DNA of 64,000 nucleotides from Betaproteobacteria bacterium HGW-Betaproteobacteria-22 (GTDB lineage Bacteria > Pseudomonadota > Gammaproteobacteria > Burkholderiales > Methylophilaceae). Under the pieces are notes generated by a model. That model saw only the letters and a program-made list of their open reading frames with translations, had not been told where the DNA came from and ran no database searches. This document shows, piece by piece, positions 16,222 to 45,842 of this stretch. The stretch spans positions 1 through 64,000 of the forward strand of contig PHCJ01000013.1 in the NCBI GenBank assembly GCA_002842285.1, in the 5' to 3' direction. Made by a program: the position numbers and the translations under genes. Each line of letters opens with the position of its first letter. Positions within the stretch are counted from its first letter, which is position 1.

Positions 16222-17682
16222 ATGGCAATGAAAGTGTTATTTGTAAGTTCAGAAGTTTTTCCACTGATCAAAACGGGGGGGTTGGCAGACGTCAGTGGCT
16301 CACTGCCAACTGCATTGCAGCAGCTTGGGGTTGACATAAGAATCTTGATGCCAGGCTACCCATCAGTGCTACAACAACTCAAGAATTTACAAGCAATCAC
16401 ACCCATACATCATTTACCGCATATCGGCCATGCTGAACTCCTGATTGGCAACATAGAGAATACAGATACGCAGGTCTACGTCATTCAGGCCCCTCAGCTT
16501 TACGAGCGTGACGGCGGCCCGTATTCAGATGTGCGGGGTGATGCGTGGCAAGACAACCCCATTCGCTTTGGTGTGCTTTCAAAAATAGCGGCTATTCTCG
16601 CATCACCAAACTCTCCAGTAAAGAATTGGCAACCGCATATTGTGCACTGTAACGATTGGCAGACCGGCCTAGCCCCCGCCTACATGAAACTCACTGAACA
16701 TAGCATGGCAAAATCTGTGATCAGCCTGCACAACATGGCATTCCAGGGTTGCTATCCTCCGCATTGGGTGACAACGCTAGGCCTGCCTAGCGCAGGGTTT
16801 AGCATAGAAGGCTTTGAATATCACGGTCAGTTATCATTTTTGAAGGCAGGTATTTTTTATGCTGATGCGATTTCAACCGTTAGCCCACGTTATGCCAAGG
16901 AGATTCAAACTGCGGCTTTTGGCTTTGGGCTAGAAGGCATATTAAGTAAACGTGGTGATGAAATCAAAGGCATCTTGAATGGGATCGAGCCTGAAGAATG
17001 GAATCCGAAAAACGACATTCACCTGCCAGCCAATTATCATGCTGGTGACATGTCGGGGAAAGCGCTGGTCAAACAGTCGTTACAATCGCAATTAGGGCTC
17101 ACTATTGATGCAGATGCACCATTATTAGGCGTAGTCAGCCGACTCACTTACCAAAAAGGTTTGGATATGCTGTTGCCAAATCTGCAAAAACTGCTGGACT
17201 TGGGCTGTCAGTTTGCACTGCTAGGCGGTGGCGAAAAAGACTTGGAACACGCATTTGCGGATATAGCCGCGAAGAACCCGGGCAAAGCCAGCGTAACCAT
17301 AGGCTACAACGAGCCACTTTCACACAGAATCATGGCGGGATGTGATATGTTTATCATGCCATCGCGCTTTGAGCCATGTGGACTTAATCAGATGTATGGC
17401 TTAGCTTATGGCACGCCGCCTATTGTAAATGCTACAGGAGGTCTTGCTGACTCGGTGACAGACACAAATACCGCGCATCTTGAAAACAAAACCGCCAATG
17501 GCTTTGTGATGGTTGAAGCAAGCGCAGATGGCTTGATTGCCTGTGTTTTACGTGCGCTGGAAATATTCAGAAATCAGCCAACAACCTGGGCACAGATTGT
17601 TCACAATGGCATGTCACAGGATTTAAGCTGGAAGCACAGCGCCAAAGAATATCTTGTCATGTATCAGGCGTTAGTGCATTAA
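16222..17682 (+). CDS. glgA: Glycogen synthase (ADP-glucose type)
   Basis: Elongates alpha-1,4-glucan from ADP-glucose for glycogen storage. With the start at ATG 16222 (MAMKVLFVSSEVFPLIKTGG) it has 486 residues, close to the usual 477-490; an upstream GTG at 16183 would add 13 residues foreign to the family. GT5 features: the KTGGLADV substrate loop near residue 18, HNMAFQG, SRLTYQKGLD in the C-terminal Rossmann domain, and PSRFEPCGLNQMYGLAYGTPP with the catalytic glutamate. It stands alone without glgB/glgC nearby. Confidence 0.95.
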   Translation: MAMKVLFVSSEVFPLIKTGGLADVSGSLPTALQQLGVDIRILMPGYPSVLQQLKNLQAITPIHHLPHIGHAELLIGNIENTDTQVYVIQAPQLYERDGGPYSDVRGDAWQDNPIRFGVLSKIAAILASPNSPVKNWQPHIVHCNDWQTGLAPAYMKLTEHSMAKSVISLHNMAFQGCYPPHWVTTLGLPSAGFSIEGFEYHGQLSFLKAGIFYADAISTVSPRYAKEIQTAAFGFGLEGILSKRGDEIKGILNGIEPEEWNPKNDIHLPANYHAGDMSGKALVKQSLQSQLGLTIDADAPLLGVVSRLTYQKGLDMLLPNLQKLLDLGCQFALLGGGEKDLEHAFADIAAKNPGKASVTIGYNEPLSHRIMAGCDMFIMPSRFEPCGLNQMYGLAYGTPPIVNATGGLADSVTDTNTAHLENKTANGFVMVEASADGLIACVLRALEIFRNQPTTWAQIVHNGMSQDLSWKHSAKEYLVMYQALVH

Positions 17683-17720
17683 ACCCAGAAAACAAATAAA
17701 AAAAGTGGGGGAAACGAGCC

Positions 17721-17738
17721 TTGGCACGCTTAATGCTT
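17721..17738 (+). promoter_or_regulatory. Sigma54 (-24/-12) promoter
   Basis: TTGGCACGCTTAATGCTT: the GG at 17723-17724 and the GC at 17735-17736 are exactly 10 bases apart, and TGGCACG is the full -24 consensus; the -12 box is ATGCT instead of TTGCW. Transcription would begin near 17748. No plus-strand gene follows before 18539, and a terminator occurs at 17786, so the product would be a short RNA. Confidence 0.6.
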
Positions 17739-17747
17739 GGTTTAAAT

Positions 17748-17814
17748 TGAGCATAATTGCTCTCCAAAGCATGTTTCTCCCCTTCGGGCGTCTTCATTGG
17801 GGCGCCCTTTTTTT
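17748..17814 (+). ncRNA. Candidate sigma54-dependent small RNA (about 67 nt)
   Basis: Begins just after the -24/-12 promoter, with a 5' stem GAGCA-TAAT-TGCTC (17749-17762), then a pyrimidine-rich single-stranded stretch containing GTTTCTCCCCTTC (which could pair with a GGGGAG-like ribosome-binding site), then a GC-rich terminator and seven T. This layout is typical of trans-acting, Hfq-binding sRNAs. No ORF is present. It is supported by sequence layout only. Confidence 0.5.
17786..17814 (+). terminator. Rho-independent terminator
   Basis: GGGCG (17786-17790) pairs with CGCCC (17803-17807), extendable with G-U pairs towards a tiny loop, followed by TTTTTTT. It ends the candidate small RNA and any glgA read-through. 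Confidence 0.85.
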
Positions 17815-17866
17815 ATGGTTAACCTTGTATGACAAGCTTAAGCTGTAGACGCGTTAGACTTGAAAG

Positions 17867-18430
17867 TTATTTCACAATAAAATGTTCTCGATAGTATTTT
17901 AATTCATCAATCGATTCATAAATATCTGCCAATGCTTCATGGCGACTGGCTTTTTTAAAACCGGAGTATATTTCAGGTTTCCAGCGACGTGCCAGCTCCT
18001 TGAACACACTTACATCCAAATTGCGATAATGAAAGAAATTTTCAAGCTCTGGCATATAGCGTGCCATAAAGCGCCTGTCCTGACATATGGAATTTCCGCA
18101 CATCGGAGATTTTCCTGCCGGTACATGCTGCTTTAAAAAAGCAATCATTTGTGCTGAAGCATCCGCTTCAGACAGGATTGAGGCCTTTACTTTGTCAATC
18201 AGGCCAGAGCGTCCATGCGTGCCTTTATTCCAGGCATCCATGCCTTCTAGCACGGCATCGCTTTGGTGTATAACCAATACAGGTGATTCACCAATTACAT
18301 TGAGGTCAGCATCAGTCACCACCGCTGCCAACTCTAAAATACGGTCAGTATCAGGGAGCAAGCCACTCATCTCCATATCCAGCCAAATTAAATTATTCTG
18401 ATTTGTCGTATTCTCAGCAGTTGCCATCAT
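17867..18430 (-). CDS. orn: Oligoribonuclease
   Basis: 3'-5' exonuclease that degrades 2-5 nt RNAs (including pGpG from c-di-GMP turnover). DEDDh family: WLDMEMSGL (first Asp and Glu), a central [16 protein letters not shown], and RHEALADI (final His and Asp). I start at ATG 18430 (MMATAE, 187 residues), preceded by TGGAAA; the frame is open further upstream to 18481, but that part does not resemble family N-termini. Divergent from the M48 protease gene. Confidence 0.94.
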
Positions 18431-18538
18431 GATTTCCATTAAAATAGTTGTAATTAAATAATTGCCGTGAACCATCACCATAAAAATGATTCACAATATA
18501 CGTATATTAACTTAATTCAATTTTGAACGAACAATAAA

Positions 18539-19789
18539 ATGGCTTTCACACTCACTACGACCTTTGTCGTTTTACTCATTGCAACCACATTGATCAGAAT
18601 CTGGCTGGGCACACGTCATATCCGGCATGTGCAGCAATATCGCAATGAAGTACCCCAGGCGTTTAGTGCCAACATTACTTTACAGGCACACCAAAAAGCG
18701 GCTGATTACACCACTGACAAAACTAAATTAGTGTTAATGGAAACTGGCGCACAGGCCGTTTTACTTGCGATTCTAACCATAGGCGGCGGCTTGCAGTGGA
18801 TAGATGCCGTATGGCGTGACATTTTGCCAGCGCATGAAATTGCACGTGGTGCCCTGGTCATCTGCAGCGCCATGCTCATCAGCGGCCTGATTGATATTCC
18901 CTTTGACTATTACAAAACCTTTACCATAGACGAAAAATTTGGTTTTAATAAAATGACCCGCGCAATGTTTGTGAGCGACCTTTGCAAACAGACACTGGTG
19001 GGACTTGCACTAGGCGCTCCTATCCTGTTTGCGGCATTGTGGTTAATGCAAGGTGCGGGAGAATATTGGTGGCTGTATTTATGGGTTGTGTGGAGCCTTT
19101 TTAATTTACTCATGCTCGCTATCTACCCGACCGTGATTGCACCTTTTTTTAATAAATTCAACCCATTGCAGGATGAAGGCTTAAAACAGCGAATTGAAGC
19201 ACTGTTAACCAAATGCGGTTTTAAATCACAAGGTTTGTTTGTTATGGATGGCTCAGCACGTAGCAGTCATGGCAATGCCTATTTCACAGGATTTGGTGCC
19301 TCAAAACGGGTAGTGTTTTTTGACACTCTGCTTGACAGACTGAATACGGATGAGATTGAAGCGGTACTTGCACATGAATTGGGGCATTTTAAACATAAAC
19401 ACGTAGTTAAACGCATTGCACTGATGTTTTTTGTAAGTTTTTTAGGCTTGGCGCTGCTTGGTTGGCTCATGAACCAACCCTGGTTTTATACCGGACTGGG
19501 CGTAACCGAGCCTAGCAACTATATGGCGCTGTTGCTGTTTTTATTGGTTTCCCCTGTATTCCTGTTTCTATTGCGGCCGATAATGGCAAGCTATTCACGT
19601 AAAAATGAGTTCGAAGCAGATCGTTATGCCGCCACACATGCTAATGCAAAACATCTGGTAGAGGCGCTCGTCAAGTTATACCGTGATAACGCTTCGACCC
19701 TGACACCGGACCCTTTGCACTCGGCATTTTATGACTCTCATCCACCTGCCAGCATCAGGGTTTCAAAATTGGCAGCTTATACCCGCTAA
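18539..19789 (+). CDS. M48 family zinc metalloprotease (Ste24/CAAX protease type)
   Basis: A 416-residue integral membrane peptidase. Zinc site HELGHFKHKH (around residue 283) and third ligand in EFEADRYAA (around 359), with several hydrophobic helices at the N-terminus (6-22, 64-84, 105-125, 152-172, 176-196) and two between the zinc motifs. The N-terminal domain FDYYKTFTIDEKFGFN is typical of the Ste24-like M48 peptidases. In bacteria these act in membrane protein quality control; the substrates of this group are mostly unknown. It stands alone between orn and rsgA. Confidence 0.9.
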   Translation: MAFTLTTTFVVLLIATTLIRIWLGTRHIRHVQQYRNEVPQAFSANITLQAHQKAADYTTDKTKLVLMETGAQAVLLAILTIGGGLQWIDAVWRDILPAHEIARGALVICSAMLISGLIDIPFDYYKTFTIDEKFGFNKMTRAMFVSDLCKQTLVGLALGAPILFAALWLMQGAGEYWWLYLWVVWSLFNLLMLAIYPTVIAPFFNKFNPLQDEGLKQRIEALLTKCGFKSQGLFVMDGSARSSHGNAYFTGFGASKRVVFFDTLLDRLNTDEIEAVLAHELGHFKHKHVVKRIALMFFVSFLGLALLGWLMNQPWFYTGLGVTEPSNYMALLLFLLVSPVFLFLLRPIMASYSRKNEFEADRYAATHANAKHLVEALVKLYRDNASTLTPDPLHSAFYDSHPPASIRVSKLAAYTR

Positions 19790-38850: not shown

Positions 38851-39858
38851 ATGAAAAAATTTATCAACAAAGTAGATGATGTACTGGTGGAAAGCCTGAG
38901 CGGTTTTGCCGCGGCACATAGTGATATTGTCAGCTTGCACCTGAACCCTAATTTTCTGACACGCAAACAGAAAGCGCTTAATAAGGTCGCGATCATTTCT
39001 GGCGGAGGCTCCGGGCATGAGCCATTACACGCTGGCTACATCGGGTATGGCATGCTGGATGCTGCCTGCCCTGGACATGTATTCACCTCTCCCACTCCTG
39101 ACCAAATGCTTGCCGCAGCAGAGAGTGTGCATGCTAACAAGGGCGTGCTATTTATCGTTAAAAATTATGCGGGTGACGTAATGAACTTTGAAATGGCAGC
39201 CGAAATGCTGCCCATAGTCAATGGGTTGCATATTGAAAGTGCAACTGTACTCACCAGCGATGACTGCGCTGTGATTAACAGCACCTACACAACAGGCCGC
39301 CGCGGCGTGGCCGGTACAGTGATTGTTGAAAAATGTGTCGGCAGCCTGGCCGAAACAGGTGCCGACCTGCAATCTTGCAAGCTGCTGGGTGATAAAATCA
39401 ATCAGCGCACTGCCAGTATGGGAGTTGCACTGACAAGCTGCACTGTACCTGCCGCGGGACGCCCTACTTTTGACATCGGCGACAATGAGCTGGAAATGGG
39501 GGTAGGCATTCACGGCGAGCCGGGTCGTAAACGTGCACAGATGGATGAGGCAGATGCCATTACTCAGGAACTGGTCAACGCCATTTTAGACACTTTAAAG
39601 CCAGTCCCCAACAGCGAAGCGTTGCTCCTGATCAATGGCTTTGGCGCAACACCTCTGATGGAGCTTTATTTGCTTTACAATACCGCCGCCAATTTATTTA
39701 AGCAGCACGGCATCCGGATTACACGCTCACTGGTAGGCAATTACACCACAGCGCTCGATATGGCAGGCGCATCTGTGACACTCTGCCTGCTGGATGATGA
39801 GATCAAACAGCACTGGGACAGCCCTGTGCATACTGCAGCATTGCGCTGGGGTAAATAA
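38851..39858 (+). CDS. dhaK: Dihydroxyacetone kinase, substrate-binding subunit DhaK
   Basis: Binds dihydroxyacetone covalently as a hemiaminal on a histidine and receives phosphate from DhaL. About 335 residues from ATG 38851 (after CAGGAC; a TTG at 38830 is a less likely start). Conserved: ISGGGSGHEPLHAGYIG, FIVKNYAGDVMNFEMA, RRGVAGT, and GVGIHGEPGRKR containing the substrate histidine. It could salvage dihydroxyacetone to DHAP, linking free triose to the RuMP cycle. Confidence 0.93.
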   Translation: MKKFINKVDDVLVESLSGFAAAHSDIVSLHLNPNFLTRKQKALNKVAIISGGGSGHEPLHAGYIGYGMLDAACPGHVFTSPTPDQMLAAAESVHANKGVLFIVKNYAGDVMNFEMAAEMLPIVNGLHIESATVLTSDDCAVINSTYTTGRRGVAGTVIVEKCVGSLAETGADLQSCKLLGDKINQRTASMGVALTSCTVPAAGRPTFDIGDNELEMGVGIHGEPGRKRAQMDEADAITQELVNAILDTLKPVPNSEALLLINGFGATPLMELYLLYNTAANLFKQHGIRITRSLVGNYTTALDMAGASVTLCLLDDEIKQHWDSPVHTAALRWGK

Positions 39859-43755: not shown

Positions 43756-43865
43756 TGTTACAAATGAGTAACAACTTAAAATTTTAGTCGTTAGCTGTTT
43801 GTTGCTATCAGACTATTCATACGCTAAATTATAAACGGGTCACAAAGATTTAAGGGGATTTAAGC

Positions 43866-45842
43866 ATGTCTATCGAGTCAGTTCTTCATGAAAACCGCGT
43901 TTTTGAACCCAGCGCAGACTTTGTCAAATCGGCTAACGTCTCGGGCATGGCTGCATACAATGCGTTATGTGAAGAAGCCGCGGCAGACTACGAAGGTTTC
44001 TGGGCTAAATTAGCCCGTGAGCTGCTGGTTTGGCATAAATCTTTCACCAAAACGCTCAATGAAGAAAACGCACCCTTCTACAAATGGTTTGAAGATGGCG
44101 AACTCAACGTTTCTGCCAACTGTCTGGACAAACACTTAAACACCATCCCTAACAAAGTCGCGATCATTTTCGAAGGTGACGACGGCAACGTCAAAAACGT
44201 CACCTACAAAGAGCTGTACCATCAGGTTTGCCAGTTTGCGAATGGCCTTAAAAAACTCAACCTCAGCGTAGGTGACCGTGTCATTATCTACCTGCCAATG
44301 GGCATTGAAGCCATTGTTGCCATGCAGGCCTGCGCACGTTTGGGTTTAGTGCACTCGGTGGTATTTGGTGGTTTTTCTGCAAAAAGCCTGAACGAGCGCA
44401 TCATCGACGCAGGCGCAAAAGCAGTCATCACCTCAGACGGCCAGTTCCGTGGTGGCAAAACCATGCCGCTCAAAGCCGCAGTGGATGAAGGCATCGGAAT
44501 GGGCGGCTGCCACTCTATTGAAAAAGTCATCGTATTGAAGAAAACCGGTATCGATATCGCGTGGAACGCGAATGACTTGTGGTGGCACGATTTGATTGAA
44601 GGCGTTGCAAACACCTGCGAACCAGTCATGGTTGGCGCAGAGCATCCGCTGTTCCTGCTTTACACCTCAGGTTCCACCGGTAAACCAAAAGGTGTGCAGC
44701 ACAGTTCCGCCGGCTACCTGCTCCACGCCATGAATACCATGCGCTGGACATTCGACATCAAGGCTGATGACGTATTCTGGTGTACAGCAGACGTGGGCTG
44801 GATCACAGGCCACAGCTACGTTGCATACGGCCCGCTCGCCATGGGTGCCACGCAGGTCGTGTTTGAAGGCATCCCCACTTACCCTAACGCCGGCCGCTTC
44901 TGGCAGATGATAGAAAAACACAAAGTGTCTATTTTCTACACCGCACCAACGGCTATTCGCTCGCTCATTAAAGCATCTGAAACCAATCCGGAAGTGCACC
45001 CGAAAAACTACAATCTCTCCAGCCTGCGCTTGCTCGGCTCAGTGGGCGAGCCAATCAACCCGGAAGCATGGATGTGGTATTACGAACAGGTAGGCGGCAG
45101 CCGCTGTCCGATTGCCGACACTTTCTGGCAGACAGAAACCGGTGGTCATGTGATTACGCCGCTGCCAGGCGTCACCCCGCTGGTGCCCGGCTCGTGCACA
45201 CTCCCCTTCCCCGGCATTGATATCGACGTTGTAGATGAAACCGGCAAAGACGTACCCTGGGGCACAGGCGGGTTACTGGTCATTAAAAAACCTTGGCCTG
45301 CCATGATCCGCACGATTTACAACGACCCTGAGCGTTACAAAACCAGCTACTACCCGGTTGATTTGGGCGGCAAGATCTACCTTGCAGGCGACGGCGCCGT
45401 GCGCGATGCCAAAACAGGCAACTTCACCATCATGGGCCGTATCGATGACGTGCTCAATGTATCAGGCCACCGTTTGGGCACCATGGAGATTGAATCTGCA
45501 CTGGTAGCTAACCACCTAGTGGCAGAAGCCGCCGTAGTAGGCAAACCGCATGACGTAAAAGGTGAATCCGTTGTGGCCTACGTCGTGCTCAAAGGCCCCC
45601 GCCCAACAGGTGATGAGGCCAGAAAAATCGTCGCCGAACTGCGCGACTGGGTGGGCAAGGAAATTGGCCCGATCGCCAAGCCGGACGAAATCCGCTTTGG
45701 TGACAACCTGCCCAAGACTCGCTCAGGCAAGATCATGCGCAGGCTGTTGCGTACACTAGCTAAAGGTGAAGAAATCACCTCGGATATTTCAACTTTAGAT
45801 AACCCGGCAATTTTGGATCAGTTAAAAGAAGTGACGAAATGA
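43866..45842 (+). CDS. acs: Acetyl-CoA synthetase
   Basis: Activates acetate to acetyl-CoA through acetyl-AMP. 658 residues, as usual: [20 protein letters not shown] (P-loop), the [11 protein letters not shown] motif, [16 protein letters not shown] hinge and the C-terminal [11 protein letters not shown] whose Lys622 is the site normally silenced by acetylation. Codon choice is rich in C-ending codons compared with neighbours, consistent with high expression. ATG follows AAGGGGAT. Monocistronic by context. Confidence 0.97.

What the first reader, a model, noticed from the sequence alone, without database searches (positions are those of the whole stretch)
17721..17814. Sigma54 promoter driving a candidate 67-nt small RNA
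A full TGGCACG -24 box with exact GG-N10-GC spacing is followed about 50 bases after the predicted start by a GC-rich hairpin and seven T. No plus-strand gene is available to this promoter. The RNA would have a 5' stem, a CTCCCC-containing single-stranded stretch suited to pairing with ribosome-binding sites, and a U-tailed terminator, the pattern of Hfq-dependent sRNAs. Sigma54 control would tie it to nitrogen or carbon state in a methylotroph.
Basis: partly seen in the sequence, partly recalled or inferred. Interest (0 to 1): 0.75.

Follow-up and report, generated by a model that had tools for sequence, protein, structure and literature searches.

The report
Sigma54-driven small RNA in methylotrophs
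Between two ordinary genes this methylotroph carries a promoter for the sigma54 form of RNA polymerase and a roughly 67-letter regulatory RNA; both are conserved in many relatives, so this is very probably a real small RNA, whose targets and trigger are still unknown.

Summary
At 17722-17737 lies TGGCACG-N4-ATGCT (GG-N10-GC), predicted start 17748, terminator ending at 17814: 67 nt between convergent glgA and orn. Alone it proves nothing, as such a box occurs about once per window by chance. Conservation decides it. A covariance model of the RNA without its promoter hits 124 of 187 Methylophilaceae genomes. Of 117 best hits beside glgA and/or orn, 116 have the box; among those whose RNA was not in the model's training set, 69 of 70. 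Both helices covary.

Two CU-rich anti-Shine-Dalgarno patches, one usually in a hairpin loop, one in the linker, make repression at ribosome-binding sites the best mechanism. That is inferred: no target was established, Hfq dependence is untested, no activator site was found.

A nitrogen link through NtrC is not supported for this RNA, whereas a second sigma54 RNA beside amtB/gshA in sister genera has NtrC-type sites (13 of 14); the window genome has no such box there.

Rfam has no matching family. Nearest in design is rhizobial MmgR, whose threshold no genome meets (0 of 187).

The parts
16222..17682 (+). glgA (glycogen synthase), upstream neighbour, same strand
   Evidence: NCBIfam NF001899 599.6 bits over cut-off 459; upstream of the RNA in 114 of 123 best hits
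17722..17737 (+). sigma54 (-24/-12) promoter TGGCACG-N4-(A)TGCT, GG-N10-GC
   Evidence: box at 10 or more of 11 positions in 118 of 123 model hits, 71 of 76 outside the training set; 1.39 bits/position against 0.19 upstream
17748..17814 (+). predicted 67-nt small RNA
   Evidence: start inferred from -24/-12 spacing, end from T-run; model hits in the family
   Evidence: in 98 of 108 distinct RNAs the first patch is instead in a hairpin loop
17758..17771 (+). alternative, family-type hairpin UGCU-CUCCAA-AGCA with the first anti-Shine-Dalgarno patch (UCUCC 17761-17765) at its loop
   Evidence: alignment A2; covariation of this helix in relatives; not the minimum-energy form in the window
17774..17782 (+). 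second CU-rich patch UUUCUCCCC in the single-stranded linker
   Evidence: a patch downstream of position 18 is fully unpaired in 96 of 108 distinct RNAs' folds, partly paired in 7, not found by the script in 5
17786..17814 (+). intrinsic terminator, stem 17786-17807 plus T7
   Evidence: terminator helix 99.3% paired, 6 of 7 pairs with two-sided changes in relatives
17867..18481 (-). orn (oligoribonuclease), convergent downstream neighbour; its true start may be further in (about 18424)
   Evidence: NCBIfam NF003765 289.2 bits over cut-off 106 for 17870-18424; downstream in 109 of 123 best hits

Best explanation
The region is a stand-alone gene for a short trans-acting small RNA made by sigma54 RNA polymerase when an as yet unidentified enhancer-binding protein is active (gene and promoter: supported by conservation; expression: inferred). 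Transcription starts near 17748 and stops at the terminator at 17814. The RNA offers two CU-rich patches complementary to ribosome-binding sites, one near the 5' end (in a hairpin loop in most relatives, single-stranded in the window's minimum-energy fold) and one in the linker before the terminator. It most likely represses translation of several mRNAs by pairing with their ribosome-binding sites, helped by Hfq docking on the U-tail (inferred from anatomy).
For: R1 model hits in 124 of 187 Methylophilaceae genomes, 93 of 119 good-quality ones, 20 of 24 genera; at least five of the 124 are not this RNA (G021, G031, G041, G049, G100). Box in 118 of 123 best hits read, starting 23-34 bases before the model start except in G021; in 71 of 76 outside the training set. 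glgA upstream and orn downstream in 106 of 123, at least one in 117. Structure on an alignment of 45 RNAs made without structure: 92.2% of cells paired, 9 of 12 pairs with two-sided changes, covariation 0.271 against 0.133 shuffled and at most 0.133 slid. On 97 distinct rows fitted to the model: 94.0%, 10 of 12 pairs (17 of 500 shuffles reach that), 0.435 against 0.209 shuffled and at most 0.165 slid. First patch in a hairpin loop in 98 of 108 distinct RNAs. rpoN domain in 176 of 187 genomes, hfq in the own genome. In about 12 of 26 upstream regions printed (read by eye) a separate terminator-like hairpin closes glgA before the box. An extra copy with its own box lies away from glgA in G026.
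Against: No transcript data. The box alone is not above chance in the window. G043 has the RNA at glgA-orn without a recognisable box, and G010 has TGTT for TGCT. 63 of 187 genomes gave no match, and rpoN is present in genera g13 and g15, none of whose genomes matched. 8 of 53 named GlgA loci have no box downstream, two because the contig ends. No tested enhancer dyad is enriched upstream. Pattern scans found no recurring target; one of the two patterns was rarer than its reversed control (5 against 15). glgA's own start region gives no pairing signal (0 of 14 loci). A weak sigma70-like match TTGGCA-16-TAAATT overlaps the box.
Confidence: 0.78

Rival explanations
1. The hairpin is only the glgA transcription terminator (or a 3'-UTR-derived RNA cut from glgA mRNA) and the sigma54-like box is accidental.
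For: The hairpin follows glgA by about 100 nt on the same strand; the scan of 17500-18000 shows no other plus-strand terminator between glgA and the box; the box alone is at chance level.
Against: The box is kept in 116 of 117 hits beside glgA and/or orn, mostly at 25-27 bases before the model start, also where glgA has its own terminator-like hairpin upstream (about 12 of 26 printed, read by eye) and where the gap from glgA to the RNA is 130-300 nt. The 5' part of the RNA is conserved and covarying, not just the terminator.
Confidence: 0.08
2. The RNA is real but its promoter is read by the housekeeping sigma factor.
For: A 9-of-12 sigma70-like match TTGGCA-16-TAAATT ends at 17748 (3 such matches in the 501 bases against 1.0 in shuffles).
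Against: In relatives the GG and GC of the -24/-12 box are the fixed positions (2.0 bits, and 1.93 for the C), whereas between -9 and -1 only position -2 reaches 0.9 bits, so no -10 hexamer is conserved (sequences chosen by the box).
Confidence: 0.06
3. The RNA is a protein-titrating decoy (like CsrB/RsmZ for CsrA or CrcZ for Hfq/Crc) rather than an mRNA-pairing RNA.
For: CrcZ is also made from an RpoN promoter (PMC8395346, passages read).
Against: The window RNA has no GGA motif, and 3 of the 45 aligned RNAs have any; no repeated A-rich motif is seen; it is about 67 nt against about 407 for CrcZ. The most constant letters include CU-rich patches complementary to Shine-Dalgarno sequences.
Confidence: 0.05
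4. It encodes a small protein or leader peptide.
For: An ATG at 17771 opens a frame of about 25 codons that runs through the terminator (read).
Against: Only 2 of 45 aligned RNAs have ATG at that column and 16 of 45 have any ATG; both helices are maintained by compensatory change.
Confidence: 0.02

Closest known systems
MmgR (alpha-r8 sRNA, Sinorhizobium meliloti; Rfam RF00519 suhB/mmgR)
   Same: Short (77 nt), Hfq-dependent, predicted anti-Shine-Dalgarno motif in the first loop, tabulated with RpoD/RpoN, induced by NtrC, linked to carbon storage (PMC7143759, passages). Its Rfam model is the best match to the window RNA (20.6 bits, E 0.028 for 211 bases).
   Different: Gathering score 41 not reached in any of 187 family genomes; alphaproteobacterial; NtrC-type sites at background upstream of the window-type RNA.
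NrsZ (Pseudomonas aeruginosa)
   Same: sRNA made by RpoN with a response-regulator activator (PMC8395346, passages).
   Different: About 226 nt, processed, NtrC-dependent, activates rhlA translation.
CrcZ/CrcY (Pseudomonas)
   Same: CrcZ is made from an RpoN-dependent promoter in an intergenic region.
   Different: About 407 nt, A-rich Hfq decoy, CbrB-activated.
GlmY/GlmZ (enterobacteria)
   Same: glmY is activated by QseF (GlrR) from a sigma54 promoter (abstract start of PMC6075780, listing). The window genome has a GlrR-like activator (537.6 bits, below cut-off 763).
   Different: The GlrR-type dyad TGTC-N10-GACA (recalled) is not enriched upstream; the RapZ-linked mechanism of GlmY/GlmZ (listing) was not tested here.
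S17S of Bordetella pertussis / bdhR1 (RF02278) of Burkholderia
   Same: Betaproteobacterial, 67 nt, starts near a C/U-rich loop, single-stranded sites complementary to ribosome-binding sites, Hfq-dependent (PMC11722255, abstract and passages).
   Different: S17S is cut by RNase E from a sigmaA transcript; RF02278 is not among the six matches up to E 10 for 17650-17860.

Membership tests
sigma54-dependent small RNA (functional class) | -24/-12 promoter with GG-N10-GC, conserved in orthologues | tested here: met
   box in 118 of 123 hits, 71 of 76 outside the training set
sigma54-dependent small RNA (functional class) | no gene between promoter and an intrinsic terminator within about 100 nt | tested here: met
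   terminator helix 99.3% paired in relatives
sigma54-dependent small RNA (functional class) | transcript lost without rpoN | not testable with these tools
   needs RNA from wild type and rpoN deletion
sigma54-dependent small RNA (functional class) | upstream binding site for an enhancer-binding protein | tested here: inconclusive
   none of the recalled dyads (NtrC, GlrR, NifA, NorR) enriched in 117 upstream regions of 220 bases; activator unknown
MmgR / alpha-r8 (RF00519) | covariance-model score at or above gathering 41 bits | tested here: not met
   0 of 187 genomes over cut-off; 25 of 187 have a weak match, 6 of these at this locus by coordinates
MmgR / alpha-r8 (RF00519) | anti-Shine-Dalgarno motif in first loop | tested here: inconclusive
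   first patch in a hairpin loop in 98 of 108 distinct RNAs, but not in the window's minimum-energy fold
Hfq-dependent base-pairing sRNA | Hfq binding / hfq dependence | not testable with these tools
   hfq gene present; U-tail present
Hfq-dependent base-pairing sRNA | conserved mRNA target | tested here: inconclusive
   exact-complement patterns in 24 and 16 genomes gave no recurring start-codon context among the 20 and 5 places read
NtrC-regulated sRNA (NrsZ-like) | NtrC dyad upstream (motif recalled) | tested here: not met
   9 of 117 at the NtrC spacing, within the 5-15 seen at other spacings, one of the 9 being G021's second RNA; positive contrast 13 of 14 for the second RNA
bdhR1/S17-type (RF02278) | Rfam model match | tested here: not met
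   absent from matches up to E 10 in 17650-17860

The most novel reading that the evidence does not exclude
Methylophilaceae use a pair of sigma54-driven anti-Shine-Dalgarno RNAs as two inputs to one translational switch. The glgA-orn RNA (this finding) would answer a non-NtrC activator, perhaps of carbon or envelope state. The amtB-gshA RNA would answer NtrC and nitrogen limitation. Sharing CUCC patches, both would act on overlapping ribosome-binding sites. The second RNA may have arisen from an amtB 3'-UTR terminator that gained its own sigma54 promoter; the window's genome kept only the first, as far as the amtB and gshA places show.
Probability: 0.25. Interest if true: 0.72.

Novelty: new member of a known kind. 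Interest (0 to 1): 0.56.

Why it matters
It gives an environmentally important family of methylotrophs a conserved candidate regulatory RNA with a defined sigma54 promoter. Searches pairing the family or its genera with small-RNA terms listed 6, 3 and 10 papers (10 of 98), none describing such an RNA by title and abstract start; none was opened for this question, so this is not proof of absence. The promoter class, the presence in named strains (Methylotenera mobilis, Methylobacillus flagellatus) and the short length make it directly testable, and an NtrC-linked second RNA gives a built-in comparison.

Tried and rejected
Plain nucleotide search reached only close relatives: 13 of 150 genomes, 2 of them (L013, L014) without glgA or orn, which understates conservation; the covariance model replaced it. 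RNAalifold on A2 found only the terminator helix, as MAFFT does not align the 5' hairpin by structure; I wrote that helix in by hand from single folds before counting, so A2's structure is partly derived from these sequences. A2's RNAs were picked by a script requiring the box; therefore separates training rows (47 of 123, all with box) from the other 76.

Enhancer sites: NtrC, GlrR, NifA and NorR dyads and an open search for 4-mer dyads gave nothing above shuffles for this RNA. IHF consensus 7 of 116 against 1.75 shuffled, too weak to use.

Targets: a 9-mer complement before ATG gave 67 matches in 22 of 24 genomes, against 16 for the pattern read backwards (that control is not matched for codon use, and at least six matches are the antisense of the RNA gene itself). 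Of 20 places read, one has a convincing start context, an mlaD-like gene in G002 (name recalled), and no gene recurs at a start codon. The second motif gave 5 matches in 16 genomes against 15 for its reversed control, one with a convincing start (a 227-residue protein in G016), no recurrence. glgA's own start region: no signal in the 14 loci where the script found it. Best duplex among 51 window start regions is acs (43866; -22.4 kcal/mol, z -2.8), about what the best of 51 may reach by chance: a lead only.

rpoN presence does not explain absence of the RNA: 176 of 187 genomes have it, including many of g13 and g15.

Out-of-family model hits (15 genomes of the 300 drawn from the order) have no box (best 7-8 of 11), so the glgA-orn RNA was not found outside the family in that sample.

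Rows dropped: 27 of 80 GlgA loci (Nitrosomonas and more distant) were left out, though the script also scanned those up to L086 and kept none; G028 was not fetched (1 of 124); three RNA ends cut short by the script (L035, L044, L050) were set by hand; one search was given 100 sources, its cap, leaving out about 20 available loci. The synteny count was wrong for minus-strand 'genome search' loci and was redone.

Full report
What is there. The window holds glgA (plus strand, ends 17682) and orn (minus strand, ends 17867), converging on 184 bases (names from NCBIfam). In between lies TGGCACGCTTAATGCT at 17722-17737: GG-N10-GC, a good match to the sigma54 -24/-12 consensus (consensus recalled). 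The spacing puts the start at 17748. A 9-pair terminator stem at 17786-17807 is followed by seven T, so the RNA would be 67 nt. Past orn the next plus-strand gene-sized ORF begins at 18539. Rfam has nothing at gathering thresholds in the window.

Chance. The strict pattern occurs twice in the window against 0.96 expected. The box by itself is therefore unremarkable, and everything depends on conservation.

Conservation of the RNA. The GlgA protein brought 80 named loci. Of the 53 closest examined, 45 have the box followed by an RNA of the same design; 8 do not, two of these because the contig ends. The 45 include Methylotenera mobilis 13, Methylotenera oryzisoli La3113, Methylobacillus flagellatus L1B and Pseudomethylobacillus aquaticus H-5. 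From 47 loci (these 45, the window and L011), 45 distinct RNAs were aligned. A covariance model of the RNA alone, without promoter (R1), found 124 of 187 genomes of the family, in 20 of 24 genera, 93 of 119 among good-quality genomes; no genome of g12, g13, g15 or g23 is among the matches, and the only hit in g21 is the second RNA below. Of 300 genomes drawn from the order (some of the same family), 20 had matches; the 15 outside the family were weak (best E 6e-5) and without a box.

Conservation of the promoter. Of 123 best hits whose surroundings were read (G028 was not), 113 have 11 of 11 box positions and 5 have 10 of 11; random 66-base stretches of the same loci reach 10 or more in 470 of 20,000. 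Since the training RNAs had been picked with a box, the fair subset is the 76 hits whose RNA is not in the training set: 71 have the box. 106 of 123 lie between glgA and orn, 8 beside glgA only, 3 beside orn only, 6 beside neither. Of the 117 beside at least one of these genes, only G043 lacks the box; outside the training set it is 69 of 70. The six others are G021 (really the second RNA described below), G026 (an extra copy with its own box; its glgA-side copy also has one), and four weak hits without box (G031, G041, G049, G100). Information content is 2.0 bits at TGGCA and at TG of the -12 element, 1.7-1.9 at the following C, T and T, and 0.19 on average from -80 to -31.

Structure. With the 5' hairpin written in by hand and the terminator from RNAalifold, the alignment made without structure gives 92.2% paired cells and 9 of 12 pairs with two-sided changes; covariation 0.271 against 0.133 in shuffles and at most 0.133 when slid; the count of further pair types is reached by 12 of 500 shuffles. 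On 97 distinct rows fitted to the model: 94.0%, 10 of 12 (reached by 17 of 500 shuffles), 0.435 against 0.209 (this alignment leans towards the model). The 5' helix is the weaker one: 82.9% and 86.6% of its cells pair. Examples of compensatory change in the first stem are AGCUU/AAGCU, AAGUCU/AGACUU (L043) and GGCCA/UGGCC (L175), visible. Folding each RNA alone, the first CUCC-type patch is in a hairpin loop in 98 of 108 distinct RNAs, single-stranded in 8 and touched by pairing in 2; some of the 8 are mislabelled because their first patch is degenerate, and one of the 108 is G021's second RNA.

How it probably works. Supported: conserved promoter, conserved RNA, exposed CU-rich patches. Inferred: transcription by sigma54 polymerase, Hfq binding, repression by pairing at ribosome-binding sites. 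The own genome has rpoN, hfq and seven strong enhancer-binding-protein domains. One is NtrC over its cut-off and one is GlrR-like below its cut-off. No tested enhancer dyad is enriched upstream of this RNA, so the trigger is unknown. Target scans gave no conserved target; acs in the window has the best duplex of 51 starts but not clearly beyond chance.

A second RNA, and a control for the method. Weak model hits away from glgA-orn led to another sigma54 RNA. Of 31 loci scanned, 14 in 12 genera have a box, 66-114 nt and a TCCTCC patch with terminator. By the motifs printed, it lies between an amtB end and gshA in 7, after amtB only in 2 (L348, L174) and before gshA without amtB close by in 5; amtB and gshA were named on one member each and linked by similarity. 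Thirteen of 14 have TGCAC-N7-GTGCA with at most two mismatches upstream (12 of them 77-108 bases before the box, one at 184) against about one in shuffles; other spacings give 1-5 of 14. This is the recalled NtrC dyad. The same test on the glgA-orn RNA gives 9 of 117 (one of these, G021, is really the second RNA), against 5-15 at other spacings. The window genome shows no such box in the 700 bases after its best amtB or the 450 before its gshA. So the NtrC link belongs to the second RNA, and its absence for the first is a meaningful negative.

Comparison. In design the closest is MmgR of Sinorhizobium meliloti: 77 nt, Hfq-dependent, anti-Shine-Dalgarno loop, RpoD/RpoN, NtrC-induced (PMC7143759, passages), and its Rfam model RF00519 is the top sub-threshold match. 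But 0 of 187 genomes pass the gathering score, so it is not filed there. NrsZ and CrcZ share RpoN control but not size (PMC8395346, passages). S17S/bdhR1 share size and single-stranded sites for ribosome-binding sites but not promoter class (PMC11722255, abstract and passages). Searches for Methylotenera with small RNA and for Methylophilaceae with sRNA listed 6 and 3 papers, none on such an RNA by title and abstract start. A wider search held 98 papers, of which ten were listed, none naming Methylobacillus or Methylophilus; two searches listed 2 and 3 papers. Papers not said to be read in passages were seen as listings only.

Verdict. A real, conserved sigma54-driven sRNA gene is much the best reading; it is a new family of a known kind. 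Its function is open.

Noticed in passing
L313-L320, L323, L335, L337, L339, L348, L174 (coordinates): A second sigma54-driven CU-rich RNA (66-114 nt) lies after amtB and/or before gshA in 12 genera; 13 of 14 carry an NtrC-type dyad TGCAC-N7-GTGCA upstream. No such box at those genes in the window genome.
   Followed up: yes
L130, L131, L137, L138, L143: Outside the family, five of the model's weak hits sit directly after what looks like an amtB stop codon (C-terminus recognised by eye): a terminator preceded by a CTCC-type patch, suggesting amtB 3'-UTR-derived RNAs in other bacteria of the order.
   Followed up: partly
L149 and relatives of genus g10 (G010, G053, G062, G071; sequences): An inverted repeat of about 11-12 bases per arm, GCAAACTGTTA...TAACAGTTTGC, lies about 100 bases upstream of the sigma54 box in four genomes; possible activator site or terminator.
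   Followed up: no
window 43831-43880: The acs (acetate--CoA ligase) start region gives the strongest predicted duplex with the RNA among 51 window start regions (-22.4 kcal/mol).
   Followed up: partly
window 39048-39063, plus strand: The only other strict sigma54-box match in the window, TGGCATGCTGGATGCT; not examined.
   Followed up: no
L231 (G026:C41:41125-41183): An extra copy of the RNA with its own 11/11 sigma54 box away from glgA and orn; the genome is listed as 3% contaminated, so it could be foreign.
   Followed up: partly
L178 (G043:C12): An orthologous RNA between glgA and orn without a recognisable sigma54 box; a natural test case for expression loss.
   Followed up: no
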